Positions 31,888-63,634 of a stretch of DNA of 64,000 bases are shown one piece after another (position 1 is the first letter of the stretch; every line of letters starts with the position of its first letter). The stretch is taken from assembly GCA_951802425.1 (NCBI GenBank), contig OX637806.1, positions 248,001 through 312,000 of the forward strand, written 5' to 3'. The stretch is from Clavaria fumosa (lineage: Eukaryota > Basidiomycota > Agaricomycetes > Agaricales > Clavariaceae). The notes beneath the pieces are model-generated. The model did not search any database and had not been told where the DNA came from. It saw only the letters and a list, made by a program, of their open reading frames with translations. Made by a program: the position numbers and the translations under genes.

Positions 31888-32767
31888 ATGGTCTCTGCTT
31901 TCATCAAACAACACGAAACCGAAACCAACAAGGACGAGAACGAGGTCGTGTGTGAAATGCACATATACAATGAAACGGAACCCAGCCTCAATCTGGGGAT
32001 CCTAGAAGATGCGCTGGCCCATCAAAAGGCTGAGCAAGAGCGATGCGCATGTATTTGCGAAGCCGCGGGCCGCTGCAAGACGTGAGGCAATGTCGCGAGT
32101 ACGAATAAGACTGTGAGCGATGTCGCGGAGTCAAGTGGGGCAGTGGAGAACGTCGCGGGCGAGGCTGACCTGTCGCCTGCGGACTTCCTAAAAGCTTGGA
32201 AGAAAATAGGGTCAGTGATGGAGAACAAAGAGTGGAATGAAAGGGAGCGAGAGGTGTGTAATAGTAGTTCTCATTCCCATTCGTTTCTTCTGATTGTTAC
32301 ATTCCAGGATTGCAATAACTGTGTCGCAAAGGGCCAACAGTGTGTGCGCAGCACTGCTGGCAAGTGTCGCCAGTGCGCAGAGGACCATGGGAAGTGTTCC
32401 TGGGTCCAGGAATTTCGTCGATGGTGTGTCAAGGCCGAATTCGGGTGGAGCGACATGCGAATCGATGAGGCTCTGCGGTCGGCAGAGGCACCAGGATCAG
32501 CTGCAACAGCGACCCCAACAGTCGTGAGTCGAGTGGGAGCCAAACTCCCCACTATTACGATTCCGGGGACCCCAACGTGAGCGGTACGTGGAAAGCGAGC
32601 AAGGACAAGGTCGCGGTCGCCAACGCCTGGTCCATCAACAAGGAGGCGAGTGGCGAAGCCATCATCATCGAAGGGGTTGGTGGAGGGAGGAGGAAAGGTT
32701 GTGGGGACCTTGGTCCCCAGGACGGATCTGGAACGGGAGCTCGCAACGCTCCATCAGCAACTCACGG
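31888..32767 (+). pseudogene. Antisense Zn2Cys6-like coiled-coil gene of family C, 5' part
   Basis: The gene starts 117 bp from the LTR edge at ATG 31888 (MVSAFIKQHETETNKD). Exon 1 is 31888-32253, the intron 32254-32307 (GTGTGT...CAG), and exon 2 starts at 32308 with the cysteine cluster DCNNC...C...CRQC...C (CX2CX6CX7CX2CX6C, all six Cys kept; about residues 124-152). A basic stretch (RTRSRSP, STRRR in the intact parallel copy) and a coiled coil follow. A TGA at 32083-32085 replaces the sense codon of copy D, and another near 32578 stands where D has CGA. Element B splits exon 2 after 32767. The 3' part is at 42574-43748. Confidence 0.82.
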
Positions 32768-33674
32768 TGTAGTAGGCTGTACAGGTGTTGGCTGCAAATA
32801 GATGTTCGCGGCCGGGTTCTTCAGGGGGTCTTATTGCACAATGGGTACACTAGACAGAACCTTCGAGGATGTGGAGGTTGAGTGCAAAAGGTTCAGAGAG
32901 TGAAAATATACGTTGTCCGGAGTATCCGGTATCAGATCCGATAGAGTCCGATGTTTGGATTGAAGGTTTGAGGGGCCGGCGACGACGAAGGCCAGCGGAT
33001 CAATAGGTACGACGAAAGGTGAGCTTGCTAAAAATCACAGCACGATGTGGGCGTTCAAAAAGCTGGATTTCCGTATAGTCCGAAGTGTGCTTAAGTACAG
33101 TTCTGTAAGTACAGCAAATTGGAATGTACGGAAATGTCCGGAAAACATATGGAACAGTGCCATGTCGCGTGAAGGGTTATATGGAGGAGTTATATCACAA
33201 GGGAATTGAGTAGCTCGGAGGAATGAAATGTCCGATGAGTAGCACATGTCCGGACTGCTTGTAAACTGAAGGAAAGTGGGGCTGGTACAGCAAAGGGGTA
33301 TTAGGAATAATGGGCAAAGTACTGCAAAGGGTTTGAAACGTTCAAATGATTGAATGGTTGAAAGGGATCACAGTATGAAATTTACAGCATGTTATATGAA
33401 ATAAAGGAATGGGAATGGAATAGTGAGTATGTCGAGCACTGACCATGCTGGAGTGATGAAATAGAAAGGCGTGGGCGGTGTGTGAGACCTGCAGGCTGTG
33501 ATCTTCACGGGGAGTCGGAGACCGGAGAGTCCGATGTCGGATAAGTATCAGTCGTTATCGGATGGTGTCGGATTGTTATCGGATTGTATCGGACGCGATT
33601 GCTTTGGATCCCGAAATATCTGGATGATTGGTATCTGTCATGTTTCTATGTTTAAACCACATATTATCCTTACA
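32768..33674 (-). repeat. 3' LTR of copy B
   Basis: TGTAGTAGG...CCTTACA. TCGG units stand at 33537, 33558, 33568, 33579 and 33589, with a sixth position mutated to TCAG at 33548. Spacing is 11, 10, 10, 11 and 10. The outer (U3) edge at 33674 is 215 bp from the ATG of the antisense gene. Confidence 0.97.
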
Positions 33675-33681
33675 TTCTCCC
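33675..33681 (-). other. Polypurine tract of copy B
   Basis: Minus strand GGGAGAA directly before the LTR start TGTAAGG. It is short but in the right place and orientation for the gag-pol strand. Confidence 0.6.
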
Positions 33682-33888
33682 GGGGGCTGAAAATGCAACT
33701 GCCCTTGGTTGCGACCAAACAAGGCCAAATAATCGTTTGTTGATCGTGAAGTACACGTTGTGTGGGTGCACATAGGTCCAAACACACACTTGTGTCTTCT
33801 CCAATAACAGCAACGCATCAACCATCCAAAAAAAAAAAAAAAAAAGGAAAACTTCGACGCTCTCGTTTTCCGGAACGCGGTCCAGGCG

Positions 33889-35403
33889 ATGATGGAGGCG
33901 TGGACCATGGCGCCGGGTGAGGAATTACTGGAGCGGGGGCAGGACAGTGAATGCGCGGAGTGGGTGCAGATGTATGGGGGTGATGCGGTGCGTGGTGTTT
34001 CTTTCTTTCTTTTTCACTTTGCACTGACAAGTTTTCAGGATGATTTCCTTGTGGGCTACGTTGCTGCAATCGACGATGATGTGGAGGTGGACGAAGGACT
34101 CGTCCTCGTCGTGCGAAGGCTCAAAAAGTGGCGAAGGCTCCGCGGGGACGAATGGACCGCTGAGCGGACAAGGAAACAGGAGGAGGCTGAAGCCGAACAG
34201 GAACGTGCGGACGAGGAGAGGGCGGCCGCCGAGAGAGCCGCAGCGGAGGCGAAGGCGGAGGAGAGGCGGACGGAGGCGACGAGAGCTGCCGAGAAGTGGG
34301 CGCGCCTCATTGTGATCAGTGACAGCGACGACGACGGCGGGGTGGCGGCGGCAACAGCAACAACAACGACAGGGGCGGCGGAGTCCGGCGCAACGGCAGT
34401 GGCGATGACGACGGTATCGCCAGACGCCGCGGAACTGCATGGGGACGAGGTAGCGACTGCGGAGGTGGAGACAGGAAAGGTACGGGTGGCAGCGGCGGAA
34501 GATCGGGACGGTCACCGGACCGTGTGGGGAACCGACAGGGTGACGCCTGTCGGTGTTATCGAAGCGGCAGCCGTGGGGGGGCAGCAGACGGTGGAGGTGC
34601 CCCTCACGTTGGAGGCTCGGGTGGGCGGGCGGATGACGGCGACTCCGGTGTGGGTGGAGATGGCGAGGCGGAAGGCGGCGGAGCGGGGGCGAGGGAGGAG
34701 GAGCAGAGCGGGGGCGGACATAAAGTCCTGGGCTGCGCGGCAGCCTGGAGATAAGGTGAGTGATCTATTAGAATGTGTGAGGGTTTTAGATATCTGATCT
34801 GATGAGTAGGAACACGATCCGGTTTGTGAGGAGTGCGCCCGGAAGCGGCGGGCGTGTTACGGAGTGGAGGGGGTAGCGTGCCGGTGGTGCCGGACCTACA
34901 AGGTGTCGTGTAGTCTGTCGGCTGTACGAGGTAAGTGGTGTTCTTTTTATTTCTTGATGAACCAATTTGAAAGGTGTGTTTCAGGAGTGAAATCGGAGAA
35001 GGTCGCGGTGTCCGGTGCTGGAGGTAAGTCAAGAGAGTACCGGATCTGTATCGGCTAACGTAGCAGTGTAGGTCCGAAGGCGGCGGAAGCGACCGCGAGC
35101 AAAAGGCCGAGGCGAGGTGCAACACAGGTACCGGTTCGCGAGGAGACGACGCCGGAGGAGGAGGAGGAGGAGGATGAAATTGAAGATGACAGCGTGGAGC
35201 TGGTGGAGGAGCCATCAGCGAAGAGGAGGAAGGCGGAGGCGGGTCCTAGCCGGAAGGGAAAGGAGCGGGAGATGGAGCCAGGAGTGTCCGGAAGGGAGGC
35301 GCTGGAGAGAGCGCTTGAGATGATGGAGAGGGGGGCGGATCAGGTGAAGGCTGGGGCGGAGCTTCTCCGGATGCTCCTTCTCGGCGGATCATCTGCTAAA
35401 TAA
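33889..35403 (+). CDS. Antisense Zn2Cys6-like nuclear-type protein of gypsy family A/B, about 435 aa
   Basis: Proposed exons 33889-33987, 34039-34755, 34810-34930, 34985-35023 and 35072-35403; the introns are 48-54 nt, all GT...AG, and the frame stays open through every junction. Order: N-terminal segment; highly charged coiled coil rich in E/A/R (about residues 60-110); acidic and Ala/Thr-rich spacer (SDSDDDGG); cysteine cluster CEECARKRRAC...CRWCRTYKVSC (about 278-306), matching the CX2CX6CX5-12CX2CX6C spacing of fungal Zn2Cys6 factors; E-run; KRRK basic motif; C-terminal helix. The cluster lies in the second half, unlike most Zn2Cys6 factors. No stop interrupts it, while pol of the same element has several. 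DNA binding is inferred from spacing only. Confidence 0.8.
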
Positions 35404-35635
35404 ACAGAATATTTCTTTCTTTTGTCTTTAACTTTATATGTTTTGTTTCTGAGTGGAAAAATAGGTGAGAAGTGTGGGACTGAGGTGTGAGGTGAGGAAC
35501 GTCGGGTATAAAGTGTGGACTTGTCCGAAATTTCAAATTTCAATTTTTTATTTTTTATTTTATTTTATTTTATTTTTGAGCTGGAAAAGCCGATATATGA
35601 GGTAGGAAAAATGGAGTATGATAGTGGAGCAGTGC

Positions 35636-38600
35636 TTAATGGAGCTTCCAGATTCCTTCGGAGCATTTCGAATGGTTATCAGGTGTATCGGAATCGGTTG
35701 CGTCGCTATCGGATTCGTCGGATTGTGCGGTAGCTTTTTCAGGATTGTCCTCGGCATCGGTGACGTTGTTGGATTTGTCGGAATGTGCTCATGATTCATC
35801 GGGCTCGTCCTCGGCTGCGATCGTGTTCTTGGGTTGGTCGTCTACATGTTGTTCCTCGTTTGGATCAATGATAGAGGTGACCGGAATCGATGTTTGCGAT
35901 CGCGGATAGTAGGGAATGATGCGGAAAGCTGCATAGTGGATCTTTGAGATGGCGCCGTCGAGTTCCGAGAGAATATATGCGCTGTATTGAGTTCGGCGGA
36001 CGACGATCATCGGTCCGAAGAATCGCAGTTTTGTTTTCCGATTTAATTCCATTTCAACGGCCGAATTGCGGATCAATACCAATGATCCGGGTTGGAAGTC
36101 GTAATCGATAATAGACTTGCGGTGTGTGTCGATGAACTGCTTGACGGATTGTTTGCGGGCAGCGAGCACTTTGTTGGTGATTGTTGCAAGATCTTCTTCT
36201 CGTTTTTGCAGTTGGCGGGCACGGAGGGCTATCAGTTCCGGAGTGGTCATCGGGGCATCGGCGGTCGGAATTAGATATGTTGCTTCAGATATGTCGAAAG
36301 GAAAAAGCGGTTCGACGCCGTGTGCGATGTAAAACAGAGAGTGACCGGTGGATCGTTGGATTGTGGTTCGTTCTGCCCAAATGACTGAGGGTAAAATGTC
36401 CGGCCATTTCGATTCGTCTCCGTCTGCTGCTTTGATTAACGACTCGCGGACTGATCGGTGGGCACGTTCGATGATGCCGTTAGTGCGAGAATTATATCCG
36501 GAAATACGGATGTGATGGACTCCATACCGCTTCTTGAGGAAATCAAGAGCTTTGATAAATGGGGCACCGTTATCCGTAATGATCTCTTCTACTGCTCCCC
36601 ATCGGCATAGTATGTCTTCAAATATGAAGGTTCCGAGAAGTCGGGCGGTCTCATTTCGTAGCGGTCTTGCTTCTGGATATGTGGATAACGAGCATCGGGC
36701 ATGGACAAGAAGTCGGAAACCGCGGGTTCTGGGTAGGAACATGGTATCTATATGCGCTCGATGAAAAAGACCGGCCGGTGTGGCGACCGTCGGTGGAATG
36801 AAAATCTTCCGGATTTGCCAAGTCTGGCATTGGTGACAAGTTCGGACAAACCATTTTACATCTTGATCCAACACCGGCCACCAGAACCGATTTAGAATAT
36901 GTGTTCGGATAACGTAAACGCCTTTGTGGCCGAGTGAATCGTGTGCCTCTGTGATAATTGCGAGCCATTTGTGGTCCGGAGGCACTACCTGGTGGCATCT
37001 GTTAGGTCGGCGACGCCATAGCTTGTCATCTAGAATGAAGAACTGGGATGCGGAGTGGACTAATCGTCGGAACTGGTTTGCGTCGATGCTGGAAGGACAG
37101 ATCGGGTTTCGAAGGAAAGATTCGATTTTGCGGATCTGTTCTTCCCTTTTCTTTGCTGCATCGGGTCGCGGTATAAGGATGGTGGAAGATTCATTCGGAG
37201 CCGGTGAATCATTGGATGGTACCGTCGAATTGAGTAGCATCGATCCTGTGTAAGCTTTGAAGCGAGAATGGGCGATGCCGGCGAGTGGCGTTTCGGATGG
37301 GTAGGAAGCGTCCGGTGCTCGATTCATGTGTTCCATGGCGAATACATAGCTCTGATCGATCCAGTCTTTGTGATCTTCGGACTCGGTGTCTTCTTCACCA
37401 TCTGTGGCACGTCGGCGTGATAGTCCGTCGGCTCCGGTGTGTTTATCTGCGGGAATATGAACAAGGTCGAAATCGAAGAGTAGTATACCGGCAATCCATC
37501 GATTCATGGCAGCGTTTGGTTGAACGTCCGGATTGTTTAGCATACCCTTAATGAACTTCGCATCCATTTCAACAGTGAATTTCGGAAGGCCGATAAGGTA
37601 AATCCGGTACGACCGAAGTGCGCGGAAGAGTCTGTATAATTCGATTTTTGCTTGAGAGTATCAGGCCTCGCGTTCGTTCCAGGTAATCGAGCCGAATCTG
37701 GATGGGTATCGGATTCCATCTTGTCCGATTTGAAATAGCGCGAAGCCGACGGCGATGTTGGACGAGTCGACGGCCATAATTACAGGCCATCCAGAGCGGT
37801 AATCGATCGGTCGAATGGCGGATGAGTTGACTATTGCGTGTTTGAGTCGATCCATTGAATTTTGCTCTTCTTCTTCGAACCTGAATGGGACGTCCTTATG
37901 AGTTAGGCTGACAAGTGGTCAGGCAAGTATGGCGTAGTTTTTGATGAATATCCGGAGCAGTCCGCAGATGCCTAAAAATGATCGTACATCTGTGAGTGTT
38001 TCGCACGGAGGCCAGTCTCAAATGCGCTGAACATTGGAAGCGTCCGGAACTCGCCCTTCATATGTGCATGTGTGTCCAGTAACGATTGTTTCGGGGGTGC
38101 AAATTGTCGTTTTCTTGCCATTAAAGGTTCCTCCGACTATTTTGACTCGTTGGAGCACCCGGTTGATGTTATTCAAATGCTCCCAAACGAACCGCCGTAT
38201 TTGCGGATTCTCCGGGATCGTCTCGTAAGTGCTGTCCGGAAGCTCGTATCGGGTTTCCGGGCCTTTAATCGCTACATCGTTTACAAATGGGATGGTTACG
38301 TGCGGAATTTCGTCTTGTAGTATATGCGTGACGTCTCCATGCATAATCTGCGTCACATTGGTGTATCCCATCAGGACGCAAGTGAGCCATTTGGCTCTGA
38401 GAGGGGTTTGAAATGTGGTAAGGTCTCGACTTCGCTCGTCAAGAGACTGTTGATCGAAGGAGACAAATAAGTCGAGAGTTCCGTAGCATCTGCGTCCGGC
38501 GAATGATTCCGCAAAAACTTCCATTATCGGGGGAACCGCGGAGTCGCCGATGGTGACTTTGTTTAATGGCTGGAGGTTATGGACAAGTCGGAGAGACTTT

Positions 38601-39172
38601 CTGTCCTTCTTTAACATGCAAAACCACTGGGACTGATAGGAGGAGTTGGACTCTTCATAGACTCCGGCTGCAATCTTGTCCCGGATAACCTTCAGAACTT
38701 CGTCGTAGATGCCGGGAGGAATCGGTATATTTTTGAAGATCCAAGGGACATGTTCGACTGTCGGGATGATAATGGGATCGAAGTATTTTGCGTCAAATCG
38801 TCCTTTTTCGGTCTCCGTCCAAGCGAAGGCATCCTCTTGGGCTTTAATCAGATAGTGAATGAGTTTTTCTTCGTCCAGCCATAAAAATCCGGTGGGGTTT
38901 GCGTTATGCGCATCTTTCCGGTCTTGAGTATATCGGAGACTGGGGGTGAAATCAGGGGGGTGTGTTGGAAGAGTGGGGATATCGGAGAGGGGATTGGGGT
39001 GTTGTCGTCGGACAATCCGAAATTCTTCGGGTAGAGTTGCTTTGATCGGGTTGACACGGTTTGCGACTTTCTTGTATTTCTTTCCAAGGTAAACTGGCAT
39101 AACGATGTCCAGAGACGGTGTATTGGTTTCTGAGTTATTGGGGTACATTATGTGTGTGGTATTGTGGTACAC
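35636..39172 (-). pseudogene. pol: Ty3/gypsy pol (RT, RNase H, integrase), copy B
   Basis: Open pieces are 39172-38018 (RT), 37855-37661 (RNase H start) and 37567-35789 (RNase H end, H2C2 finger, integrase with HID, TDNG and NGIIERAH catalytic residues, C-terminal domain). Most stops between pieces are TGA at codons that copy A shows as CGA: 38015-38017, about 37918 and about 37658. Another TGA at 35786-35788 faces CAA in copy A, implying an ancestral CGA. The RT active site reads FVND, with the first Asp changed. The C-terminal acidic tail runs to TAA at 35636. The reading order and length fit a once-complete enzyme. Confidence 0.93.
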
Positions 39173-39272
39173 CGGTGTGTATCCGGCTCCGGAATGTTGC
39201 GGTGATCCGGGGCTCCAGCTATTAAAAATCCAGATGCGTTTTCTGAAGTTTGAGGTTCTTCCGGATCAGGAT

Positions 39273-41273
39273 TCACTCCTTTGTCGGTACGATGATCCTT
39301 TCTCCAGTGTTCGGATCGTTCAGGATCAGGTCTTGGGCACCATGAGGATGGTCGATAGTTTGGGAGCCGGTAAGCATAAAGAACGGGCGTCCGACGAGGA
39401 CCTCGCAAGGTAGGGTATCGGCGACCTGCATTTGGACATGAAACGTGCATGGACCGATCTGCAAGGGAAAGTTCTTTATCAGTCCGAGCGTCGGGGCGAT
39501 GGTACCGTGTGAGGACTCCATATGAATTACGCGCTTGGAGTGCAGCGGATTACCGAGCTTCTCCCAAATGTCTCTTTGCATTGCCACGATCGAGCTGCCT
39601 TGATCGAGCAAGCACTCTGTGGCGATCCGGCTATCCAATATGCCTTCTACGATGCGGAGCGGAGCGGCTTCGACAGCTACGACAAGATCGGAGGTGTCCG
39701 GGGTTGTAACGTTTGTGTAGAGTGTATCCTGTATGACGGACGCAGTGACCGGAACTTGGTGGGCGGTAACCATATCCTTCATCTTTTTGCGGACGTCGGT
39801 GACCAGAACTTGGCGGGCGGTAACCATATCCTTCATCTTTTTGCAGACGTCTCTGGAAATGGCGAGTAATTCACGGGGTGTCACACGGACCGGAATGTCG
39901 AGTGCATGATCGAAAACTTGTTGAACGGTTACCGGATTTTCTATCGGAGTTTGGTAATGATACTGGACGTCAGATCGTTCGATTCTTTCCGGCTTCGATG
40001 GGCGCGTGACTGGAGGCGAGGTAATGACAACAGCGGGCGGAGGAGGTAACCTAGATGGCTGTGGATCGTTATTCCTGAGTGTGGGCGCTTTCCTTTTTCC
40101 CTTATCTACTTTCTTTGCTACATCGTTTGCAAAGGTGCGGACCATGTTTTCCAACATGGTCGTCTCGTTATCTTCTTCTTCCAATTCGTCTTCCATGTCC
40201 AGGGGGTGAGCAGATGGTCCGATCGGCTGTGCTTCAAATACCGCGGTTGTCGCCGGTTGCGTGTTCTGGGATTGGTAAGTAGCATAGTACTTGTCAAAGC
40301 GCTCGGATAAGTTATTTCCTATGATAGTCCCAGGCAAGTATCGTCTGGAGGGGAGGCAAATCCTGCCTTCGGTGTTCCATATACATTTACCGGACTTGAT
40401 GTATTTGAGGGCCTTCGGACAGGCACTAACAAAATGACCTGGTTCCGAACAGAAATTACACGTCCGGCCTGCAGGGGAATTCGTCGTCCGAGGAGCAGAA
40501 CATTTTGCCTGTTCGAGAGACTGGGCTGATAAAATTGATTCGAGGCGAGCCATTGTGGAGGCGAATGTTGCCAAGGCTGCGGACATATCAAATTCTTCCT
40601 TCTTGATCATTGGTTTTGTCTCTCTCCTGGGGGTTGCGGATGCGAAGCAGATAGGTCCGGAGAATTGATCGGTTGTTACGGAGTGCAGGGACATTGAGGA
40701 GAGTAGAAATTCGGCTGCAGCGTGAACCTCATTCATCGGGTATGGGTCCTCCGGATGGTGATTAGGTAGTATAATCGCGAGCCGGCTCTCGATCCAGCGC
40801 CTAGTATGATCCCCAAATCCGAGGATGTAAAGCCGGTTTCTGTCATTTGTGGACATACGTTGGGAGGTGATCAAGTGCGAAGTGATCCGGAGAAAGTCCC
40901 GGTAATATTCTCCGTGTTCTGCACGTGTGTAAACCCCTTTTTGGGCCAAGTCTGATATGAAACGGTCCAAATCGGCGACAGAAAACAAACGACTGCCATC
41001 GGAGCCTGGATAAAGGCGTCGGACAGCCGCTTTGAAGGTTTCCCAGGTCCATACCGGGTCCGGGGCTGGTGTGAGGGTCTCCCAGAGGAGACATGTGTCT
41101 GTGTCGAGGTAGTGCTTTGCGTACCGAATTAAATCGGCTTCTGGAACGTCTGGATTAATGCCGGTGAGTACGATGTCGATGTCCTCGAAATACCGGTTGA
41201 GATGGGTTGGTACTCCGTCAAAGGCGGGGGCCCCGTGAGTGCCACGGAGCGGATATCTCGGTTGGTTGGCCAT
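39273..41273 (-). CDS. gag: Ty3/gypsy gag-protease, copy B, open over 666 codons
   Basis: It starts MANQPRYPLRGTHG at 41273. The gag domain is followed by a CX2CX4HX4C knuckle (CNFCSEPGHFVSAC, near 40440) and the aspartic protease motif LLDQGS (near 39590-39610). A 54-bp tandem duplication at about 39750-39850 repeats 18 residues (KKMKDMVTA...) that occur once in copy A. The frame is open to 39273, where it ends after VPTKE; copy A continues about 20 codons further, so this end is also a small truncation. Expression would need the 5' LTR promoter at 41663-42569. Confidence 0.9.
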   Translation of the reverse strand: MANQPRYPLRGTHGAPAFDGVPTHLNRYFEDIDIVLTGINPDVPEADLIRYAKHYLDTDTCLLWETLTPAPDPVWTWETFKAAVRRLYPGSDGSRLFSVADLDRFISDLAQKGVYTRAEHGEYYRDFLRITSHLITSQRMSTNDRNRLYILGFGDHTRRWIESRLAIILPNHHPEDPYPMNEVHAAAEFLLSSMSLHSVTTDQFSGPICFASATPRRETKPMIKKEEFDMSAALATFASTMARLESILSAQSLEQAKCSAPRTTNSPAGRTCNFCSEPGHFVSACPKALKYIKSGKCIWNTEGRICLPSRRYLPGTIIGNNLSERFDKYYATYQSQNTQPATTAVFEAQPIGPSAHPLDMEDELEEEDNETTMLENMVRTFANDVAKKVDKGKRKAPTLRNNDPQPSRLPPPPAVVITSPPVTRPSKPERIERSDVQYHYQTPIENPVTVQQVFDHALDIPVRVTPRELLAISRDVCKKMKDMVTARQVLVTDVRKKMKDMVTAHQVPVTASVIQDTLYTNVTTPDTSDLVVAVEAAPLRIVEGILDSRIATECLLDQGSSIVAMQRDIWEKLGNPLHSKRVIHMESSHGTIAPTLGLIKNFPLQIGPCTFHVQMQVADTLPCEVLVGRPFFMLTGSQTIDHPHGAQDLILNDPNTGERIIVPTKE

Positions 41274-41640
41274 TGGTATTGCTGCGTGAGGAAGTTCTTG
41301 TACGGCGTCGAGAGGATTCTGTGGTTCATCAGTTGGAAATTGTATGGTGTTCAGTCCGAGGGGTAGTGGTGTGAGCGGTGAGTGTGGTTCTTCGAAGATC
41401 TGTGGTAATGAGGTAACCGGGGTGGCGAAGCTTGTGTGGTAGTAGACAATGGATGAAATACTGGGAATGTCCGATGGAAGAAAGTGGGAAGTTTCAATTA
41501 CTTCTCCAGGAGGTTCGGAGTGCGGTGATTCTGTGATTCGATCCGGGTTTCGACTTCTCAGACGTTCGGAGCATCGAGGCTGAAAAGCGGAGGAGCCTCT
41601 GGGAATCCTTGAAGGCTGTAGTGAAGACGTTGTTACGACC

Positions 41641-41658
41641 CCCTCGCGGTGGGCTCCA
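41641..41658 (-). other. Primer-binding site, copy B
   Basis: Minus strand TGGAGCCCACCGCGAGGG, starting four bases inside the 5' LTR. It fits a tRNA ending GGGCTCCA (tRNA-Cys is the best guess because of U73). Confidence 0.65.
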
Positions 41659-41662
41659 AAAT

Positions 41663-42569
41663 TGTAGTAGGCTGTACAGGTGTTGGCTGCAAATAGATGT
41701 TCGCGGCCGGGTTCTTCAGGGGGTCTTATTGCACAACGGGTACACTAGACAGAACCTTGGAGGATGTGGAGGTTGAGTGCAAAAGGTTCAGAGAGTGAAA
41801 ATATACGTTGTCCGGAGTATCCGGTATCGGATCCGATAGAGTCCGATGTTTGGATTGAAGGTTCGAGGGGCCGGCGATGACGAAGGCCAGCAGATCAATA
41901 GGTACGACGAAAGGTGAGCTTGCTAAAAATCACAGCACGATGTGGGCATTCAAAAAGCTGGATTTCCATATAGTCCGAAGTGTGCTTAAGTACAGTTCTG
42001 TAAGTACAGCAAATTGGAATGTACGGAAATGTCCGGAAAACATATGGAACAGCGCCATGTCGTGTGAAGGGTTATATGGAGGAGTTATATCACAAGGGAA
42101 TTGAGTAGCTCGGAGGAATGAAATGTCCGATGAGTAGCACATGTCCGGACCGCTCGTAAACTGAAGGAAAGTGGGGCTGGTACAGCAAAGGGGTATTAGG
42201 AATAATGGGCAAAGTACTGCAAAGGGTTTGAAACGTTCAAATGATTGAATGGTTGAAAGGGATCACAATATGAAATTTACAGCATGTTATATGAAATAAA
42301 GGAATGGGAATGGAATAGTGAGTATGTCAAGCACTGACCATGCTGGAGTGATGAAATAAAAAGGCATGGGCGGTGTGTGAGACCTGCGGGCTGTGATCTT
42401 CACAGGGAGTCAGAGACCGGAGAGTCTGATGTCGGATAAGTATCGGTCGTTATCGGACGGTGTCGGATTGTTATCGGATCGTATCGGACGCGATTGCTTT
42501 GGATCCCGAAATATCCGGATGATCGGTATCTGTCATGTTTCTATGTTTAAACCGCATATTATCCTTACA
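41663..42569 (-). repeat. 5' LTR of copy B
   Basis: It holds all six TCGG units intact at 42432, 42443, 42453, 42463, 42474 and 42484, 85-137 bp from its outer edge (start of U3 for gag-pol). TG...CA ends; flanked by ACGG at 42570. Confidence 0.97.
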
Positions 42570-42573
42570 ACGG

Positions 42574-43748
42574 AACCCACGAAGAAGATAGCGTGGGTAT
42601 ACAAGTCGCATCGGGAGACGGAATTGGAGGTGGAATTGGCGGCGGCTAAGCGTGAGTTGGAGGCGTTGCGGTGGGGCAAGAAAGGTGAGCCCTAAATTTT
42701 CTTTATCGATTCGCGGTCTTACTGAACTTGCAGATTCATAGGAAAAGGTAAAGAAGTGGAGGCGGCGCAGGGTGACACGACGAAGGTGTCCACGCCCATC
42801 AACATAGAGGCGGAGAATGTGAAATTGAGGGTGTGGATAGTGAATACCAAGAAGGATTTCTCGGAGCTCGAATGGGAATGGCAAGGCGAGTAGTCATTCT
42901 ATTTTATAGTGTTGCGGGCTAATCTTGTTGTGGACCAGACCAGGAAGTCAAATTGAGGGAGGCGTGAGGTGAGGTGAAGGAGTTGAAAAAGGAAAAAGAG
43001 GGTAAGTCAACAGTCGCGAGTATAAAATGAGCTGATCTTTGTTCGTAGGATGGTTGGTGATGGTGGAGAAGACTCGCAACGAGTTCGAGGAGGTAATAGC
43101 GACGATGAAAAAGGAAGGGACTGGTAAGTCGTGATTTCATCTCGCGACGTTATAAGCTGACATTTGTGTTTATCTAGACCATAAGGTCGAGCTGGAGGAG
43201 GCTGGACGACAATTGGAGGAGGCTGAGGAATCGGAACGAAGTAAGTTCCATAGTCGCGAGTATAACACAAACTAATCTTTGTTTTGTAGGTTTGTTCGTG
43301 ACTGTAGAGAGGATGGAAAAGGAGTTGAAGGTGTCGAGGGAGCAGGAAAAAGGTAAGTCCTCGTGTTTTTTTAATTTTTTTTTGGCAACAAACTGAAGAT
43401 TGGTTTTTAGAGTTGCATGACCAATGTGCGAGTATGGTTGGTGAGCTCCGCGAGGCTCGCTTTCGAGGACGGCGAGGCCTCGAGACGGTCTTCTTCGTGT
43501 ATGAAGACCTTTTGATGAAGTCGCCGGAAGAACTCCCGTCATGGGTAGAGCAATGGGCAGAGCAGGAGCAGCGTCACATGAGGAGGGAGCTGTTGGATAT
43601 TCTGAGGGTGGACAATTGGGGTTTTGAGTTGAAGGCTCCCGAGGCTGGAGAGGAGGAGAAGGGGGAAAAGGAAAAAGTTGCGAGTGTGGAAGGCAGGGAA
43701 GGAGCAGAAGGGTCGCAAAAGGGGAAGGAAAAAGCTTGCGACCAGTAG
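42574..43748 (+). pseudogene. Antisense Zn2Cys6-like coiled-coil gene of family C, 3' part
   Basis: It resumes exon 2 directly after the target duplication (EPTKKIAWVYKSHRETELEVEL). The first intron is 42685-42741, followed by a series of short exons of about 60-150 nt separated by introns of about 55-65 nt, together encoding coiled coil (VKELKKEKE, NEFEEVIATMKKEG, KVELEEAGRQLEEAEESE, MEKELKVSREQEK). The last exon (about 43411-43748) reads LHDQCASMVGELREARFRG and ends in a Lys/Glu-rich tail. A TGA near 42968 lies in one of the small exons. The donor after GGCAAG near 42885 is probably GC, not GT. The gene ends about 100 bp from the pol stop on the other strand. Confidence 0.75.
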
Positions 43749-43846
43749 ATAAAAATTTTCTTGTTGTATTTTTATTGCGTATATATGAATTGCTGTGAAG
43801 TCCGAAGTGAGAAAGTGAAGAAAAAACAAGAAAGAGGCGAGGAAAA

Positions 43847-48951: not shown

Positions 48952-48977
48952 GAGTATGGGGGTTGGATCGTCATGAC

Positions 48978-51967: not shown

Positions 51968-52083
51968 TTACCCCCCCTTCAAGCCTCGAGCCCTGCAAGA
52001 GTGGAGATCACGTGATGATTAGTCAGCGCGATGTTTGTTGATCAGGTCACAACACCCGAAAATTTTCTCTAAGTCCAACCACC

Positions 52084-53280
52084 ATGGTCTCCGCTTTCAT
52101 CAAACAACACGAAACCGAAACCAACAAGGACGAGAACGAGGTCGCGCATGAAATGCGCATATACGATGAAACGGAACCCAGCCTCAATCTGGGGATCCTA
52201 GAAGACGTGCTGGCCCGTCAAAAGGCTGAGCAAGAGCGATGTGTGCGTCTTCGCAAAGCCGCGGGCCGCCGCAAGACACGAGGCAACGTCGCGAGTACGA
52301 ATAAGACTGCGAGCGATGTCGTGGAGTCAAGCGGGGCGGTGGAGAACGTCGCGGGCGAGGCTGACCTGTCGCCCGCAGACTTCCTAAAAGCTTGGAAGAA
52401 AATAGGGTCAGTGATGGAGAACAAAGAGTGGAACGAAAGGGAGCGAGAGGTGCGTAATAGTAGTTCTCATTCCCATTCGTTTCTTCTGATTGTTACATTC
52501 CAGGATTGCAATAACTGCATCGCAAAGGGCTGACAGTGTGTGCGCAGCACTGCCGGCAAGTGTCGCCAGTGTGCAGAGGACCATGGGAAGTGTTCCTGGG
52601 TCCAGGAATTTCGTCAATGGCGTGTCAAGGCCGAATTCGGGTGGAGCGACGTGCAAATTGATGAGGCTCTGCGGCGGGCAGAGGCACCAGGATCGGCTGC
52701 AACAGCAACCCCAACAGTCGCGAGTCGAGTGGGAGCCAAACTCCCCACTATTACGATTCCGGGGACCCCAACGCGAGCGGTATGCGGAAAGCGAGCAAGG
52801 ACAAGGTCGCGGTCGCCGATGCCTGGTCCATCAACAAGGAGGCGAGTGGCGAAGCCGTCATCATCGAAGGGGTTGGTGGAGGGAGGAGGAAAGGTTGTGG
52901 GGACCTTGGTCCCCAGGATGGATCTGGAACGGGAGCTCGCAACGCTCCATCAGCAACTCGCGGAACCCACAAAGAAGATAGCGTGGGTATACAAGTCGCA
53001 TCGGGAGACGGAATTGGAGGTGGAATTGGTGGCGGCTAAGCGTGAGTTGGAGGCGTTGCGGTGGGGCAAGAAAGGTGAGCCCTAAATTTTCTTTATCAAT
53101 TCGCGGTCTTACTGAACTTGCGGATTTGTAGGAAAAGGTAAAGAAGTGGAGGGGGCGCAGGGTGACACGACGAAGGTGTCCACGCCCATCAACATAGAGG
53201 CGGAGAATGTGAAATTGAGGGCGCAGATAGTGAATACCAAGAAGGATTTCTCGGCGCTCGAATGGGAATGGCAAGGCGAG
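52084..53280 (+). pseudogene. Antisense Zn2Cys6-like gene, family C copy D, 3'-truncated
   Basis: Exon 1 is 52084-52449 (122 codons), the intron 52450-52503, exon 2 52504-53074, intron 53075-53131, exon 3 from 53132. The cysteine cluster (C124, C127, C134, C142, C145, C152) is followed by QEFRQWRVKAEFGWSDVQIDEAL, a Ser/Arg-rich basic stretch (RTRSRSP, PSTRRR) and the coiled coil LERELATLHQQLAEPTKKI. A single TGA inside the cluster (52531-52533) faces CAA in copy C, implying an ancestral CGA that decayed on opposite strands in the two copies. This copy contains the empty target site of element B near 52970. It is cut at 53280 by the hAT element. Confidence 0.82.
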
Positions 53281-55092
53281 TAGTGCCAGTCAAGGGTACA
53301 GCTGAACCATACGGGTTTCAAGTACAGGTACCATGGGTTATGGGTCTGAGTCCCATCATGGATGACCTGCAGTACCCATAGTCAGAGTTCTAACAGATGA
53401 TCCACAGTACCTGTAGTCAGAGTTCTAACCTAAATACACAGGATACACTACCTATCATACAACTGCAATATCAATAATGGCCAAAAGGCGGTCTTCAACC
53501 ACAAAGAAATCACCCCCGCCATCCAACAGGCAACGGAGAAACACCCACCAACAATCCCCTGCTCCATCCCCTGCTCCATCTCGATCTCGGAGTCTCAGTA
53601 TGGCAGAAATAACTGAAAAGGAAACCCCTGAGGAGGAATTGAGTGAGTTGACAGTGCAGAACTGTTCACTGTTGAGCTGATGGCACATCAGAACGACTCG
53701 CAAAAGAATGGGTATCACCTGTCTATGCATTCTACAAGCCAGAAGTTGGCATAAAGGCTGACAAAGCTGGAAGCCAGGGGCATGAATTCGCATGTGCAAA
53801 ACACGGTTGCACCACAAAGATAACGAGGTGGCTGGATAAAGGTGATGCACAGTCAACAAGCAATCTTCGAAAACATGTAAAATGCTGCTGGGGTGATGAG
53901 GTACTTGGCGCTTCCAATGGATTGAAAGCAGGGTTGGCGAGGGAGGCTGTGGCGAGTTATGTTATATCTGGATCGATCACAGCAGCATTCAAAAGACTAA
54001 ACAAGTCAGGCAAAAAGACTTACTCGGCTCGTCAGCATACAAAGAAGGAGATTCAGTGAGGGTATCATCCTGAAATGATGGGAGCAGTTCTCATGGAGAT
54101 TGGACAGCGCTGAGATTGTACGATGGGTCAGCAAGTCGGTGCGCCCATTTTCAATTGTCGAAGACGAGGGCTTCAAATGCTTGATGAAAACGGGGCGCCC
54201 TGAGCTTTGGCTGCCATCCATGAGGACTGTAGCACGAGACGTTCATCGAGTATTTGCCCGCTGTCATGCATGGTTAGCAAAATTGTTGCAGGTGAGAAAC
54301 CCCATGTCGAGATTGAGAAAAACTGACTCACCACTAGGAGTATGGAGGCTGCCTGAGTCTCGCCGTCGATGCATGGAGCTCACCGAACCACAAGGCATTC
54401 TTGGCCATCACAGTTCACCTTCTGTGCGACGGCGAACCACTGTGTGTGGTCCTTGACGTGATCGAGCTGGTGAAGGCACATACTGGGCGGAACATGGCAA
54501 AGGCCATTGCTGACACCTTGGAGGCATTTGGAATTGCTAAGAAGGTGCGTTAGATAGGGAGGCAAAGACATGAACTGACAATATGAACAGCTCCTTGCAC
54601 TCACCACCGATAACGCATCCCCAAATGATGTTATGGTTGACATGCTTGAGGGCCTCATTCCCAGCTTCGGCAGAGCAGTGAATAGAGTACATTGCTTTGA
54701 CCATGTCACAAATTTGGTTGCGAAAAGTTTGCTTGCACCGTTTGATGGAGGAAAGGTGATTGAGCTTGAGGGAGAGGGTGAAGACAATGACGAAGACGTT
54801 GCTGATGATGATGGTCAATTGGATAATGATGAAGGGTGGACAGACGAGAGAACTCGCCTGAGTGAGGAAGAGCGATTTGCGCTTGATGATAGCGTTGACC
54901 CTGTGGCAATGGTGCTCATTAAGGTGAGTGATAAGGGATATCGTGAATGAATGACAGTTGAATGTACTCCCACCAGCTCAGGAAAATCACCTCTTTGACC
55001 CTACATTCAACGACGAAGCGGTTGCCACATTGGTTCGACATCTTGAACAAGCTGAAGCTCGACAAGAAAACATTGCCACAAGATGTGAGGAC
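53281..55092 (+). pseudogene. hAT transposase gene, BED-finger type, degenerate
   Basis: The left end TAGTGCCAGTC at 53281 is a plausible hAT terminus. Coding blocks in order: MAKRRSS... basic Ser/Pro-rich start (53477); BED-type finger with CAKHGC and NLRKHVKCC (about 53800-53890); KTYSARQHTKKEIQ then stop near 54057; AEIVRWVSKSVRPFSIVEDEGFKCLMKTGRPE (54112-54210); TTDNASPNDVM with the catalytic-domain Asp (54605-54640); CFDHVTNLVAKS (54700); and, across an intron near 54925-54975, KITSLTLHSTTKRLPHW...LPQDVRT ending at the insertion point. The reading DVRT-QWN continues at 57772 after removing the LTR element. Stops and frame changes break it. Confidence 0.82.
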
Positions 55093-55852: not shown

Positions 55853-55869
55853 CATCTAGACAATAAGAT

Positions 55870-57771: not shown

Positions 57772-57793
57772 AGGACGCAGTGGAATTTGCCAG

Positions 57794-58404: not shown

Positions 58405-58534
58405 GCAGCTCAGAGAGCACAGTATGACTCTCCAGCTGCTCTGACTCCGATCGTACTAAACCTATACTCAATACCCTTTCCTTTCATCGTTCTCTCTCTC
58501 TTCTTGCCTCCTCTCCTTCTATTCCTTCTCCGTT

Positions 58535-61500
58535 CAAAGCAATGATAGACTCTGGCGCTGAACTTTGTTTCATTGATGCCAAATTTTCCTCTTGCCTCCA
58601 TCTTCCAAAAACTCCGGTGACCCCCTGGGAGGTCGTTTTTATTAACCGGACCACCTCCATATGGGTTACCGAAGCAGTCTGGCTCTCCATTCAGCTCTCC
58701 ACCATGGATCCGACTGATGTCTTGTGTGTAGTTACCAACCTTGATCCCTCTAGTGATGTGATCTTGGGAATGAATTGGCTGTTCCAAAACAACCTGCTGG
58801 TTGACTGGACTACTGGCCAGATAAAGCCCAGACCATCTACTAATGAGGAAAAAACTCCGAAATCTGATCTGGAGGGTGCACCGGCCAGCACTCTCCATTC
58901 TGTCCCTCTGTCTGTCTCTGCTCTGTGCACTCCGGTTCAAATGTTGTCTGCAGCAACTCTGAACCAAGCCCAGACTCTGTCTCCATCTCTGCTTCTGTCT
59001 CCATCTTTGACTCCATCTCTGACCATTCCGTCTACTCTGTCTCTCCAGGAGGCACCTAAGATTTCTTTTGTGAATGCTGCTGCATTTGTCATGGCTTGTG
59101 GACTTCACGGGTCCCAAGTCTTTGGCATGATGTTGTTGAGCGAATCTGCATGCATGGCCTCTGCTTTGTTCAATGTCCCTGACACCACCCCCAGGATCTC
59201 CTCTCCATTCCAGAGGAGTACAGGGACTTTCCGGATGTCTTCAGTAAAAAGAAGGCAGACACCCTTGCTCCACATCGTCCATATGACCTAAAAATCAACC
59301 TGCTGGAGGGCGAATCCCCTCCACCAGGTGCGGTCTACTCCCTGTCACAGTCCGAACTCAGCAAACTCCACAAGTTTCTGGACAAGCATCTTCACATTGG
59401 ATTTATCTGTCCAAGCCGTTCTCTGCATGGAGCACCTGTGCTTTTCGTATGAAAAAAGAACAGAATGCTCTGACTTTGTGTCGATTTCCGTGGTCTCAAT
59501 AAAGTGACCAAAAAAGACTGTTATCTGCTTCTGCTGACTAAAGATCTTCTTGATGTTCCAGGAAAAGCCTGAATTTATACAAAACTCAACCTCTGACATG
59601 CATATCACCTGGTCCATATCGCTGAGGGTGACGAATGGAAGACTGCATTCCGCACCTGATACGGATCCTTTGAATGGTGTGTGATGCCCTTTGGGCTCAC
59701 CAATGCACCTGCCACTTTCCAGCACTTCATGAACAATATATTCTCCAACCTCCTCGACACGTTCATGGTCATCTATCTCGACAACATCCTCATTTACTCT
59801 GAGGACCTGAATCAACATGTTGAGCATGTCCGAGAGGTACTCCGAAGGCTCTGGAAGAATGATCTCTTCCTGAACCTGGCTAAGTGTGAATTTCATGCTG
59901 AAACTGTGGAGTATCTCAGATTTGTTTTATCTCCAGCCAGACTTTCTATGGATACAGCCAAAGTTAAGGCTATACAGGATTGGCCTACTCTGCAGAAGGT
60001 CAAAGATGTACAGTCCTTCCTCGGGTTCACCAATTTCTATCACTGCTTTGTCCATGGATACTCCGACATCATTGCCCCAATGACCAGCCTCACACAAAAG
60101 AATATCCTGTGGCTTTGGTCCAATGACTGCCAGTCTGCCTTCAACTCTCTAAAAACAGCATTCTCCACTGCTCTGATCCTCTCGCACTTCATCCCAGGAG
60201 CTCTGCTTATAGTTGAAATGGACACCTCGGACTACACTGTCGCCACGATACTCTCTACAGTCGCCTCCGACAGTGATGTCCATCCTATTGCCTTTCATTC
60301 CCGAACCCTAGGCATCTCCGAACTGAACTATGACACCCATGATAAGGAACTCCTTGCTATATTTGAGGTGTTTACTGCCTGGAGGCATTATCTCAAAGGT
60401 TGTGAAACTCCGGTCAACATAGTTACCAACCATAAGAACCTCGAGTACTTCTCCATGGTCTGCCTGCTCACCCGGCATCAAGCCAGGTGGTCAGAGTTCC
60501 TCTCCCAGTTCAACTTCATGATTTGATTCTGCCCCGGTCGCCTCAGAATGAAACCCGATGCATTGACTAGATGTTGGGACATCTATCCCAAAGAGGGGGA
60601 TAGTGACTATGCCCGCGTCAATCCGCAAAACCTCTGGCCAATGTTCACCAGCAGACAGTTGATCTTGTCACTCTGAGCCTCATTGCTTTATGTACCCACA
60701 CTCCGTGCATCGTTTGTGATTGACGATAACCAACTCCACGAGGATATCTGGTCTGGACTCTTGCTGGATCCTGTGATCGTCCTGATCCTAGAAGACCTCC
60801 GCTCGAACTCTGCAGACCCTAAGTGGTCCATGGATGACGACGGACTTCTCTGCGAGTGCAGACGGATTTATGGACCAGACGTCAATGACCTCTGACTCCG
60901 TGTTTTACATGCGAGACATGATCACCTGCTTGCCAGACATTTTGGTCAGACCAAGACTACGGCCTTGGTCTTCAGGGATTATACCTGGCCGAAACTCCAA
61001 GGATTTGTGTCGGACTTTTGCAAATCTTGCACGACTTGTGGTAGGGCAAAAGCCCCTCGGCATAAGCCATATGGAATGCTCAAGCAGCTACCCATACCCA
61101 AGAAACCGTGGAATTCCATTTCAATGGATTTCATTGAGCAACTCCCTGAGAGCTCCGGTTTTACCACAATTCTAGTGGTTGTTGATAGGTTTACGAAGCA
61201 AGGGGTTTTCATCCCGACAACCAATGAAGTGAACTCCGTGGAGTTGGCTCGTCTGTTTGTACTCCACATCTTTTCGAAACACGGAGTTCTGTTGCACATC
61301 ACCTCCAACCATGGCTCCGAGTTCATCTCTTGTTTTTTCCGCTCATTGGGCAAGGTCCTTGACATGACCTTGCACTTCACCTCCAGATACCATCTGGAGG
61401 GTGACAGACAGATGGAGCAAACAAATCAGATGTTGGAACAGTACCTCCATTGTTACTGCAATTACCAGCAGGACAACTGGTCCGAACTACTACCCCTAGC

Positions 61501-62203
61501 AGAGTTTGCCTACAACAATGCTCTGAGCACCACTACTGGGGTCTCTCCATTCTTTGCAAACAAGGGCTATCACCCAAATATACCAGTGTACCCAGAACAT
61601 GAAGTAACCTCAGTTCATGCCTGAATACTCACTGTGGACTTGGATCAACTGCACCAAGAACTCCATAACCAAATTGCTGAAGCACAACATTGCTATCAGG
61701 GCCTGGCAGACACCCATCGGACTCCAGCACCAGAGTTTAAGGTTGGAAACCAAGTATACATCAAGGCGAAGTACTTCCGTATGACCAGACCCTCCCCAAA
61801 ACTAGCTGAGAAGTTCCTTGGACCCTTCGAGATCATCGGAGAGGCTGGCTCGCATGCCTTCATACTCCGACTCCCTGAGGCCATGTGAGTGGTCCACCCC
61901 ATCTTCCACATTTCCATGCTGGAACCCATAACTCCGAACACAATTCCGAATTGTATAGTCCCTCTGCCTCCTCTGGTAGAGATCGACGGAGACCTTGAGC
62001 ACAAAATCTCTGAAGTGCTTGACTCCAAGATCAACAAATGCCGCAGCTGCAAACTCCTATATTTGGTGCAGTGGACTGGATATGAAGGGACTGAGGAGGA
62101 AATGTCTTGGTTACCAGCTACAGAACTCGTACACACCTCCGAGGCTGTTTTGGACTTCCATCATGCTTATCTGAACAAGCCTGGACCTCTCAATTCCCTT
62201 TAG
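58535..62203 (+). pseudogene. pol: Ty3/gypsy chromovirus pol, element G
   Basis: Order: protease (AMIDSGAELCFID, 58541), linker, RT (about 59190-59950; MPFGLTNAPATFQ, active site YLDN at about 59780), RNase H (VEMDTSDYTVATIL, HDKELLAIFEVFTAW), integrase H2C2 and core (SMDFIEQLPES, TSNHGSEF in place of TSDRG, GDRQMEQTNQM in place of DGQTERVNQ) and chromodomain (EISEVLDSK...YLVQWTGYEG), ending at 62203. Many in-frame stops are TGA at expected CGA codons, for example at about 59570, 59595, 59658, 60525, 60675, 60894, 61622 and 61886. At least one frameshift lies near 59280. The second integrase Asp position reads N (SNHG), so the integrase is also dead. Confidence 0.93.
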
Positions 62204-62329
62204 ACCTTACTCCACTTACTCCGATACCCCAATTTTATTTCCTTTCTATTCTACATACATTCCTCTTCTATATAACTCTGTTCCCTCCAAAAAAAATAAA
62301 TAGAATTCTTAGGTATATCCGTCTCTTTT

Positions 62330-62600
62330 TCCTTGTCCCCTTACTCTGTCTTCTCTGAAATTCCAAATACAATATTCCTTACTCTGTTTTCTCTGAAACT
62401 CCGAAAGAGCTATTCTCTCTTCTCTCTATTCCTTACTCTGTTTTCTCTGAAACTCCGAAAAAACAATTCTCTCTTCTCTCCATTCCTTTACTCCATTTTC
62501 TCTGAAACTCCGAAAAAACAATTCTCTCTCCTCTGTTTCCTTATTCCGCTTTCTCCAAAACTCCGAAAACAAAATTCTTACCTTCTTCTCTGAAAAAAAA
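62330..62600 (+). repeat. ~60-bp tandem repeat between pol and the antisense gene of G
   Basis: About five units of the type TTACTCTGTTTTCTCTGAAA + CTCCGAAAAAACAATTCTCT. Every unit carries CTCCGAAA or its TG-decayed form. It lies in the convergent gap between pol and the antisense gene. Confidence 0.8.
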
Positions 62601-62768
62601 CTCTGAATCTCTTTCTTCATTTTCTTTTCCTCTCTGTCTTGCCTTACTTATTTTTCCTTTCACTCTGCTTACTTTCACTCAAATTCAAAGATAAAAAAAC
62701 AATAAATTTATATATATATAAAAAAAGAAAAACAATAAATAGATATGTAGATTTATTTTATTATTATT

Positions 62769-63634
62769 TTAGGTGGAGGGGGGCAAGCTGGGCGATGCCT
62801 GCAAAATTCCTTTGGGCTTCTCCAGCCCAGACTCCGCTACCACTTCCCCTGCCTCTGCCTCTGCCTCTGCCTCCATCTCCATCTTCTCTGCCTCCTTCTC
62901 CTTCCCCTTGCCCTTCTCCATTTCCACCACCTCCACCACCAATTCTCCATCTCCCCCTTCTCTGCTTCTCCCTCCTTCTCCTTCCTCTCCGCCTCTGCCT
63001 TCTCCACCATCTCCATCCTCCTCCCCCACTTCTCCAAAACTCCTCAGAGGATCCTCCGATCCTCTGCCACCGCCTTCCACTCCACTGTCACCTCCTTCCT
63101 CCACTCCTCAAGGGCAAACACCCCCCGCACCACATTCACAAAGTGTTCCTCCGCCAACCCCTCCCACGGCATCTGCATCACCGCCCGCTCCTCCTCCTCC
63201 TCCTCCTCCTCCTCCGTGGACCGCTTGGTCCGCGTTGCCTTTGCCCGCTTCTGCTCCAGCCCCTCCGCTTCTCCGCCCCCGCACCTCTGCTTCTCTCCCG
63301 CACAGGCGTTGCAGGCCGTGCCCCACCCCCCACTTGGCCACACACAGGCCACCCCCAACCTCCGACATCGTGTGCACTCCGCATGATCCACCTCCACCTC
63401 TGGCGTCGGGGACTGTTTCCGCCCCATGCCTTGCTCCCGCGCCACCTCCGCCGCCCGCTGCTTGGCCTCCACCGCCCTCGCCCTCTCCAGCTCCTCCTGC
63501 CGCACCTTATCCACTACCTCCTCCTCCCGCCTCCATCGCTCCTCTTCCTCCCTCGCCTTCTTCTCCCTCAACACATTGATTTTCTTCGTGAGGGCCGCAA
63601 TCTCGGGGTCCTTGTCCTCTGCGCAAGGCTGCAT
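62769..63634 (-). pseudogene. Antisense Zn2Cys6-like gene of gypsy element G
   Basis: The first frame (63634-63044, 196 codons) has a charged coiled coil (IAALTKKINVLREKKAREEEERWRR), then the cysteine cluster CTRCRRLGVAC...CNACAGEKQRC at residues 87-118 (CX2CX6CX10CX2CX6C), then a basic stretch (KRAKATRTKRS), an E-run and a helical segment. The second frame (63104-62769) carries a Glu/Gly/Lys-rich tail ending SLPPST. The two frames overlap, so a splice or a frameshift joins them; I cannot tell which. An upstream exon may exist (MSNNQLTPRAG near 63715). The gene lies opposite to pol and points away from the 3' LTR, as in families A/B and C/D. DNA binding is inferred. Confidence 0.68.

What the first reader, a model, noticed from the sequence alone, without database searches (positions are those of the whole stretch)
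31888..63634. Three unrelated Ty3/gypsy families carry an antisense, spliced Zn2Cys6-like gene between pol and the 3' LTR
Seen: in A/B (33889-35403), C/D (31888-43748 split; 52084-53280) and G (63634-62769) a gene lies opposite to gag-pol, starts next to the 3' LTR and runs towards the end of pol. Each encodes a cysteine cluster CX2CX6CX7-10CX2CX6C, basic stretches and coiled coil. The proteins share almost no other sequence and the gag-pol genes are clearly different families. Introns in the A/B and C/D genes are incompatible with copying through the sense genomic RNA being spliced, because the gene is antisense and its introns are invisible to that RNA; this explains how they persist. Inference: independent capture, or an old captured gene that has diverged, keeping a common role such as activation, anti-silencing or self-control.
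Basis: partly seen in the sequence, partly recalled or inferred. Interest (0 to 1): 0.92.

Follow-up and report, generated by a model that had tools for sequence, protein, structure and literature searches.

The report
Antisense zinc-cluster genes in fungal retrotransposons
Several families of jumping genes in this fungus carry, on the strand opposite to their own replication genes, a conserved and sometimes intron-bearing gene for a protein that looks DNA-binding, which may let each element control its own activity.

Summary
In three Ty3 families (A/B, C/D, G) a gene lies antisense to gag-pol between the end of pol and the 3' LTR, encoding coiled coil, basic stretches and CX2CX6CX7-10CX2CX6C. 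Genome-wide, 72 of 75 B-type integrase rows, 57 of 70 C-type and 67 of 91 G-type have it downstream on the opposite strand. Four B introns are kept in 31 copies (GT 121 of 121, AG 119 of 121). Median dN/dS in the predicted frame is 0.31 (B), 0.27 and 0.15 (two D exons), 0.44 (G). A young B subfamily keeps the gene: 34 near-identical open exon-2 copies. Two further families show diverged versions by eye, a third none. Corrections: C and G are related; G is unspliced; in the window only B's copy is unbroken. Most likely it is an element-borne Zn2Cys6-type regulator, although Pfam's cut-off is not reached. B-family U3 holds TCGG motifs 10-11 bp apart, a candidate target. RNA, zinc binding and DNA binding are untested. 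Closest known: antisense TRP28 genes of plant Retand elements, and HTLV-1 HBZ.

The parts
32768..33674 (-). 3' LTR of element B
   Evidence: self-comparison, 97.1% identical to 41663-42569
41663..42569 (-). 5' LTR of element B
   Evidence: ACGG on both flanks of the element
39273..41273 (-). B gag and protease ORF
   Evidence: weak Pfam zf-CCHC and aspartyl protease matches, below cut-off
38018..39172 (-). B reverse transcriptase region
   Evidence: weak RVT_1 match E 0.0018, below cut-off
35789..37567 (-). B integrase, end of pol
   Evidence: Integrase_H2C2 E 1.7e-15
33889..35403 (+). B antisense gene: exons 33889-33987, 34039-34755, 34810-34930, 34985-35023, 35072-35403; Cys cluster in exon 3
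   Evidence: spliced 435-aa open frame; introns kept in 31 copies; dN/dS 0.31
33515..33592 (.). TCGG motifs in the U3 part of B's 3' LTR (33515, 33537, 33558, 33568, 33579, 33589), candidate target site
1..1493 (+). A element: decayed antisense gene copy (start lies outside the window)
30290..31772 (-). 3' LTR of element C
31888..32767 (+). C antisense gene, first part, with intron 1 and Cys cluster; stop ending at 32085; interrupted by element B
42570..43748 (+). C antisense gene, second part: coiled-coil-like exons with short introns (by eye)
43933..45058 (-). C integrase region and end of pol
45326..46060 (-). C RNase H
   Evidence: RT_RNaseH_2 E 4.5e-32
46066..47533 (-). solo LTR inside C pol, ATAA on both sides
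47467..49913 (-). C protease-RT (47467-48951) and gag (48978-49913)
   Evidence: RVT_1 E 2.6e-31, Retrotrans_gag E 1.8e-5
50481..51968 (-). LTR that appears to be shared by C (as 5' LTR) and fragment D (as 3' LTR)
   Evidence: inference from layout
52084..53284 (+). D antisense gene: exons 52084-52449, 52504-53074, 53132-53283; TGA at 52531-52533; cut off at 53284
59681..60526 (+). G RT (part) and RNase H
   Evidence: RVT_1 E 7.6e-19, RT_RNaseH_2 E 1.5e-27
60965..62203 (+). G integrase (60965-61624) and, by eye, chromodomain (61889-62203)
   Evidence: weak Integrase_H2C2 and rve matches, below cut-off
62769..63715 (-). G antisense gene, single exon, CTRCRRLGVACVWPSGGWGTACNACAGEKQRC; decayed copy

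Best explanation
Each element carries a second transcription unit that starts beside its 3' LTR and runs against gag-pol. It makes a small protein with a Zn2Cys6-like cluster, basic stretches and long coiled coils. The likeliest function is an element-specific transcription regulator that pairs through the coiled coil and binds the element's own U3. The same U3 lies upstream of gag-pol in the 5' LTR and upstream of the antisense gene in the 3' LTR, so one protein could tune both. Because the gene is antisense, the genomic RNA does not splice its introns, and it is copied whole in each round. Shown: gene structure, linkage, selection on the protein, recent amplification with the gene. Inferred: promoter position, zinc and DNA binding, the U3 target, and the sign (activation or repression).
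For: Linkage to own-family integrase on the opposite strand: 72 of 75, 57 of 70, 67 of 91 rows; with partial rows added, C 66 of 86 and G 86 of 118; cross-family pairings 0 to 2. Introns in 31 B copies; D intron 1 GT-AG in 12 of 12. dN/dS 0.31, 0.27, 0.15, 0.44, lowest at D's cluster. Homologues elsewhere: 12 (G), 3 (B), 2 (D) proteins; in the G set of 13, five Cys are invariant and the sixth nearly so. HHalign between families aligns the cluster, E 0.004-0.04; D against three host Zn2Cys6 domains E 0.0004 over 33 columns. The only two PDB sequences matched by the cluster profile (E 0.74 and 1.5) are LEU3 and LAC9. A G-homologue model has a short helix after each CxxC and long flanking helices. 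TCGG steps of 10-11 bp in B-family U3; excess CGG spacing, z 4.5-6.9, in B, young-B, F1 and a G-like LTR.
Against: Pfam Zn_clus stays below its cut-off for G (12.7-16.9 bits against 21) and is absent for B and D. HHalign probabilities are only 1-9% between families and 3-34% against host domains. Model confidence at the cluster is low (pLDDT about 50-60). C/D LTRs show no CGG excess (z -0.6 to 0.1); B pol (4.3), G pol (3.0) and window 8669-17000 (3.2) do, as does B's antisense gene. TCGG columns are not significantly better kept (p 0.15). Antisense and pol distances correlate weakly (Mantel r 0.25; 19 of 2000 permutations reach it). No RNA evidence.
Confidence: 0.6

Rival explanations
1. The protein is a nucleic-acid-binding or chromatin-acting accessory factor (RNA chaperone, nuclear import aid or anti-silencing factor), not a sequence-specific transcription regulator.
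For: Fast divergence outside the cluster, charged coiled coils, Zn_clus below the Pfam cut-off; C/D LTR lacks a CGG array. Stops inside listed integrase copies are mostly TGA, as CpG decay would give, which hints at a silencing system to resist.
Against: Exact Zn2Cys6 spacing in three families; LEU3 and LAC9 as the only PDB matches; TCGG array in B U3.
Confidence: 0.25
2. The antisense transcript itself, not the protein, is the functional product: RNA-based self-control of copy number.
For: Antisense RNA of LTR elements may act through RNA (discussed for plants, passages of PMC7264820).
Against: Purifying selection on the protein, kept splice sites and cysteines.
Confidence: 0.06
3. The families captured host Zn2Cys6 genes independently (a question of origin, compatible with the best explanation).
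For: Little similarity outside the cluster; G unspliced while B and D are spliced.
Against: Same place and orientation in five families, two of them sisters read by eye in one copy each; phase-0 intron just before the first Cys in both B and D. Closeness to particular host genes was hardly tested: three host domains only.
Confidence: 0.3
4. Passenger gene or artefact: chance open frame in GC-rich repeats.
For: Glu/Ala-rich low-complexity stretches; the mirror frame (rc 1) also has low dN/dS: 0.44 in B, 0.43 and 0.28 in D, 0.55 in G.
Against: Predicted frame lowest in every set and the four non-mirror frames at 0.73-1.34; GT-AG introns in 31 copies; Cys pattern in 0 of 200,000 shuffles; young open copies.
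Confidence: 0.02

Closest known systems
[quoted passage not shown]
   Same: Ty3 element; [quoted passage not shown] predicted DNA binding; tandem repeats in about half (passages of PMC11963269; passages of PMC7264820).
   Different: TRP28 is described there as seen only in flowering plants, and Retand as a non-chromovirus lineage. Here: a fungus, a Zn2Cys6-like cluster, conserved introns, and both chromodomain and other Ty3 lineages.
HTLV-1 HBZ
   Same: Antisense, starts in the 3' LTR, spliced, makes a transcription regulator (abstract of PMC1459196).
   Different: A bZIP protein of a retrovirus of people; no sequence kinship was tested.
Fungal Zn2Cys6 transcription factors (GAL4, LEU3, LAC9 type)
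   Same: Cys spacing; coiled coil near the cluster (its dimerising role in that class is recalled).
   Different: Below the Pfam cut-off; element-borne, antisense, multicopy; coiled coil on both sides of the cluster in the G model.
Extra ORFs in bdelloid rotifer LTR elements (PMC5408684)
   Same: Accessory ORFs shared between diverse retroelement types (title and start of abstract in search listings).
   Different: Not read further; orientation and domain not compared.

Membership tests
Ty3/gypsy LTR retrotransposon (the carriers) | LTR pair, gag, protease-RT-RNaseH-integrase order | tested here: met
   B complete (several Pfam matches weak), C broken by inserts, G's 3' LTR runs off the window
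Zn2Cys6 (Pfam Zn_clus) protein | CX2CX6CX5-12CX2CX6-8C spacing (pattern recalled) | tested here: met
   met in B (25 of 31 copies), D and G; the script found no full pattern in the single F1, F2 and F3 copies
Zn2Cys6 (Pfam Zn_clus) protein | match above the Pfam gathering score | tested here: not met
   G 12.7-16.9 bits against 21; B and D none
Zn2Cys6 (Pfam Zn_clus) protein | binuclear zinc fold | tested here: inconclusive
   helix after each CxxC, low pLDDT; LEU3 and LAC9 at E 0.74 and 1.5
Zn2Cys6 (Pfam Zn_clus) protein | binds CGG-type sites (recalled) | not testable with these tools
   only circumstantial LTR arrays
[quoted passage not shown]
Antisense aORF-3R as in plants | TRP28 domain (Retand) | tested here: not met
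   no PF04195 match in the Pfam scans
HBZ-like antisense regulator | spliced antisense transcript from the 3' LTR | not testable with these tools
   no RNA data; splice sites only

The most novel reading that the evidence does not exclude
A Zn2Cys6-like regulator was acquired once on the antisense strand of an early fungal Ty3 element and has diverged with each lineage since. In each it co-evolves with its own LTR array of helically phased short motifs, forming a self-control circuit whose gene can keep its introns only because it is antisense.
Probability: 0.35. Interest if true: 0.85.

Novelty: new variant of a known kind. Interest (0 to 1): 0.74.

Why it matters
It brings the plant antisense-ORF puzzle and the HBZ layout into a fungus, with a recognisable DNA-binding-type cluster, dozens of young copies and a candidate target array. 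'What do antisense genes of LTR elements do?' thus becomes testable by simple DNA-binding assays. It also shows how a retroelement can keep introns.

Tried and rejected
Independent capture was lowered, not excluded. A CGG-array rule for all families was rejected: C/D LTRs do not show it. Better conservation of TCGG columns was not significant (p 0.15). Co-inheritance of antisense gene and pol was weak (Mantel r 0.25 over 27 sequences). A scan of viral contigs with the G alignment found no relative. NCBIfam gave nothing useful. Of ten paper searches, nine sought precedents and one HBZ; their listings showed no fungal antisense Zn2Cys6 gene in LTR elements. The library lacks most subscription journals. 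PMC3248453, PMC3411680 and PMC2864245 were searched by term only, with no 'antisense' hit.

Rows dropped before counts. The tool scores only best candidates, so misses are upper bounds; 'downstream' means within 8 kb. One search used all 75 B integrase rows (two are pieces of one copy), the 150 exon-2 rows shown of 165, 54 of 54 D rows, 40 of 45 G gene rows, 94 of 150 C-type and 96 of 150 G-type integrase rows. One search used the first 70 C-type rows (83-99% identity; its label says 81-99) and 91 G-type rows (79-100%), and counted 18 and 24 distant rows apart (1 of 18 and 0 of 24 with the searched gene); short or weak gene rows were left out. One search counted the partial integrase rows left out: C 9 of 16, G 19 of 27, against a part of the gene lists. 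The remaining 46 C and 8 G rows were not counted.
Full report
The window lies in a 48.8 Mb genome of 17 contigs at C13:248001-312000. Short GT-AG introns and Zn2Cys6 domains (16 matches) point to a fungus; I did not identify the species.

Anatomy. Element B (32768-42569, minus strand) is complete, with LTRs 97.1% identical. It is nested in element C, whose 3' LTR is 30290-31772 and whose 5' LTR, 50481-51968, appears to serve also as the 3' LTR of fragment D. A solo LTR (46066-47533) splits C's pol between RT and RNase H. G is a plus-strand element whose 3' LTR runs off the window. In each, the stretch between the end of pol and the 3' LTR holds a gene on the other strand; it starts 215 bp (B) or 116 bp (C, D) from the LTR edge.

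The genes. B has five exons and an open 435-aa product with CEECARKRRACYGVEGVACRWCRTYKVSC. C and D share a gene whose second exon opens with DCNNC and holds CX2CX6CX7CX2CX6C; C is broken by B and by a stop, D by a TGA and by truncation. None of 200,000 shuffles of each of three proteins (W_B, L070, and a piece of the D homologue P0016) contains the Cys pattern.

Genome-wide test. Antisense genes of each type sit downstream of their own integrase on the opposite strand: 72 of 75 B-type rows, 57 of the first 70 C-type rows (83-99% identity) and 67 of 91 G-type rows (79-100%). With the partial rows added, C is 66 of 86 and G 86 of 118. Wrong-family pairings in that orientation number 0 to 2. From the gene side, 79 of 150 B exon-2 places, 46 of 54 D places and 33 of 40 G places had their integrase in the lists; 1, 0 and 1 were on the same strand, 1, 2 and 0 otherwise placed, and 69, 6 and 6 had none listed within 8 kb. 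The lists are capped, so misses are upper bounds.

Coding tests. In 31 B copies the four introns keep GT in 121 of 121 and AG in 119 of 121 present cases; 25 of 31 keep the full Cys pattern. Median dN/dS is 0.31 over 435 pairs in the predicted frame; the others give 0.94-1.25 except the mirror frame, 0.44, whose codon positions reflect the true one. D gives 0.27 in exon 1 (others 0.89-1.05, mirror 0.43) and 0.15 in the first 330 nt of exon 2 with the cluster (others 1.14-1.34, mirror 0.28). G gives 0.44 (others 0.73-1.07, mirror 0.55), the weakest case. D intron 1 is GT-AG in 12 of 12 copies; intron 2 is so in 11 of 12 at the aligned place. For comparison, the pol end gives 0.25 in 27 sequences. 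The antisense gene diverges faster than pol (mean distance 0.151 against 0.092), and the two distances correlate weakly, r 0.25, with 19 of 2000 permutations as high.

Recent activity. A B subfamily with many near-identical integrases and 1287-aa open pol frames was read downstream of pol in two copies. In L093 the antisense gene is open, has four introns and keeps all six Cys; L094 has a large deletion in exon 2. Exon 2 of this type is found open, full length and at least 98% identical in 34 listed places, with several more shortened. So elements multiplied recently while carrying the gene, and the copies carry introns where read; an RNA that spliced them could not have passed them on.

Wider spread. 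One copy each of two families at 68-69% integrase identity to G (F1, L095) or C (F2, L096), where the searches saw no antisense match, has antisense charged coiled-coil-like frames and partial Cys clusters such as CDQCREKRVGC and CVRCIGVAETLCDRCTRQKRPC. The script found no full six-Cys pattern in them, and their exons do not join in one frame by eye; the F2 copy is interrupted by a G-like solo LTR. A third family (F3, L097) shows none in the 2.8 kb read. Homologues occur in sequence databases: 12, 3 and 2 proteins for G, B and D; their genomic context was not seen.

Origin. B is a different Ty3 lineage from C and G (20-23% against 51% integrase identity). Between the three proteins, profile comparison aligns the cluster alone (E 0.004-0.04, HHalign probability 1-9%). 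B and D both have a phase-0 intron, five codons and one codon before the first Cys. I favour one old gene, or exchange between lineages, over three captures, without proof.

Mechanism. The cluster resembles Zn2Cys6 domains. D aligns in register with three host domains (E 0.0004; B 0.014, G 0.018). LEU3 and LAC9 are the only PDB matches up to E 10, weak and half by half. A model of a G homologue shows a short helix after each CxxC and long helices on either side, with low confidence at the cluster (mean pLDDT 67, pTM 0.23). Pfam's cut-off is not reached. B-family U3 carries up to six TCGG at 10-11 bp steps among 30 sequences, with losses in decayed copies. CGG pairs 9-12 bp apart are in excess in B, young-B, F1 and a G-like LTR (z 4.5-6.9), weaker in A (2.8), and not in C, D, a solo LTR or F3 (z -0.6 to 0.2). 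B pol (4.3), window 8669-17000 (3.2) and G pol (3.0) are also in excess, which weakens the argument. The likeliest reading is an element-specific regulator acting on its own U3; this is inference.

Known relatives. Plant Retand elements carry antisense TRP28 genes in 97% of clusters, with predicted DNA binding (passages of PMC11963269; see also passages of PMC7264820). HTLV-1 HBZ is antisense, starts in the 3' LTR, is spliced and regulates transcription (abstract of PMC1459196). I saw no report for fungi in nine searches of an incomplete library. I therefore call it a new variant of a known kind.

Noticed in passing
17138-18677: Long tandem array (steps that look like multiples of about 33 bp) overlapping an open frame of 278 codons at 17856-18692; seen as many overlapping self-matches.
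   Followed up: no
53477-53950: Downstream of truncated D, frames that by eye resemble a BED-type finger of a hAT transposase.
   Followed up: no
46066-47533: Solo LTR of the C/D type inside C's own pol, ATAA on both sides.
   Followed up: partly
L096 1140-1740: G-like solo LTR, by eye, inside the antisense gene of an F2 element; holds a 10-bp TCCGACCAAC array of 4.1 copies.
   Followed up: partly
L097 2395-2801 (element sense): In the F3 family a sense gag-like frame, by eye, lies about 1.9 kb after the end of pol, so elements may be in tandem or the layout differs.
   Followed up: no
62373-62578: 54-bp tandem repeat of 3.8 copies between G pol and its antisense gene, unit with CTCCGAAAAAAC.
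   Followed up: no
integrase copies listed: Stops inside decayed copies are mostly TGA, as expected from C-to-T change at CGA, i.e. CpG methylation or a RIP-like process.
   Followed up: no
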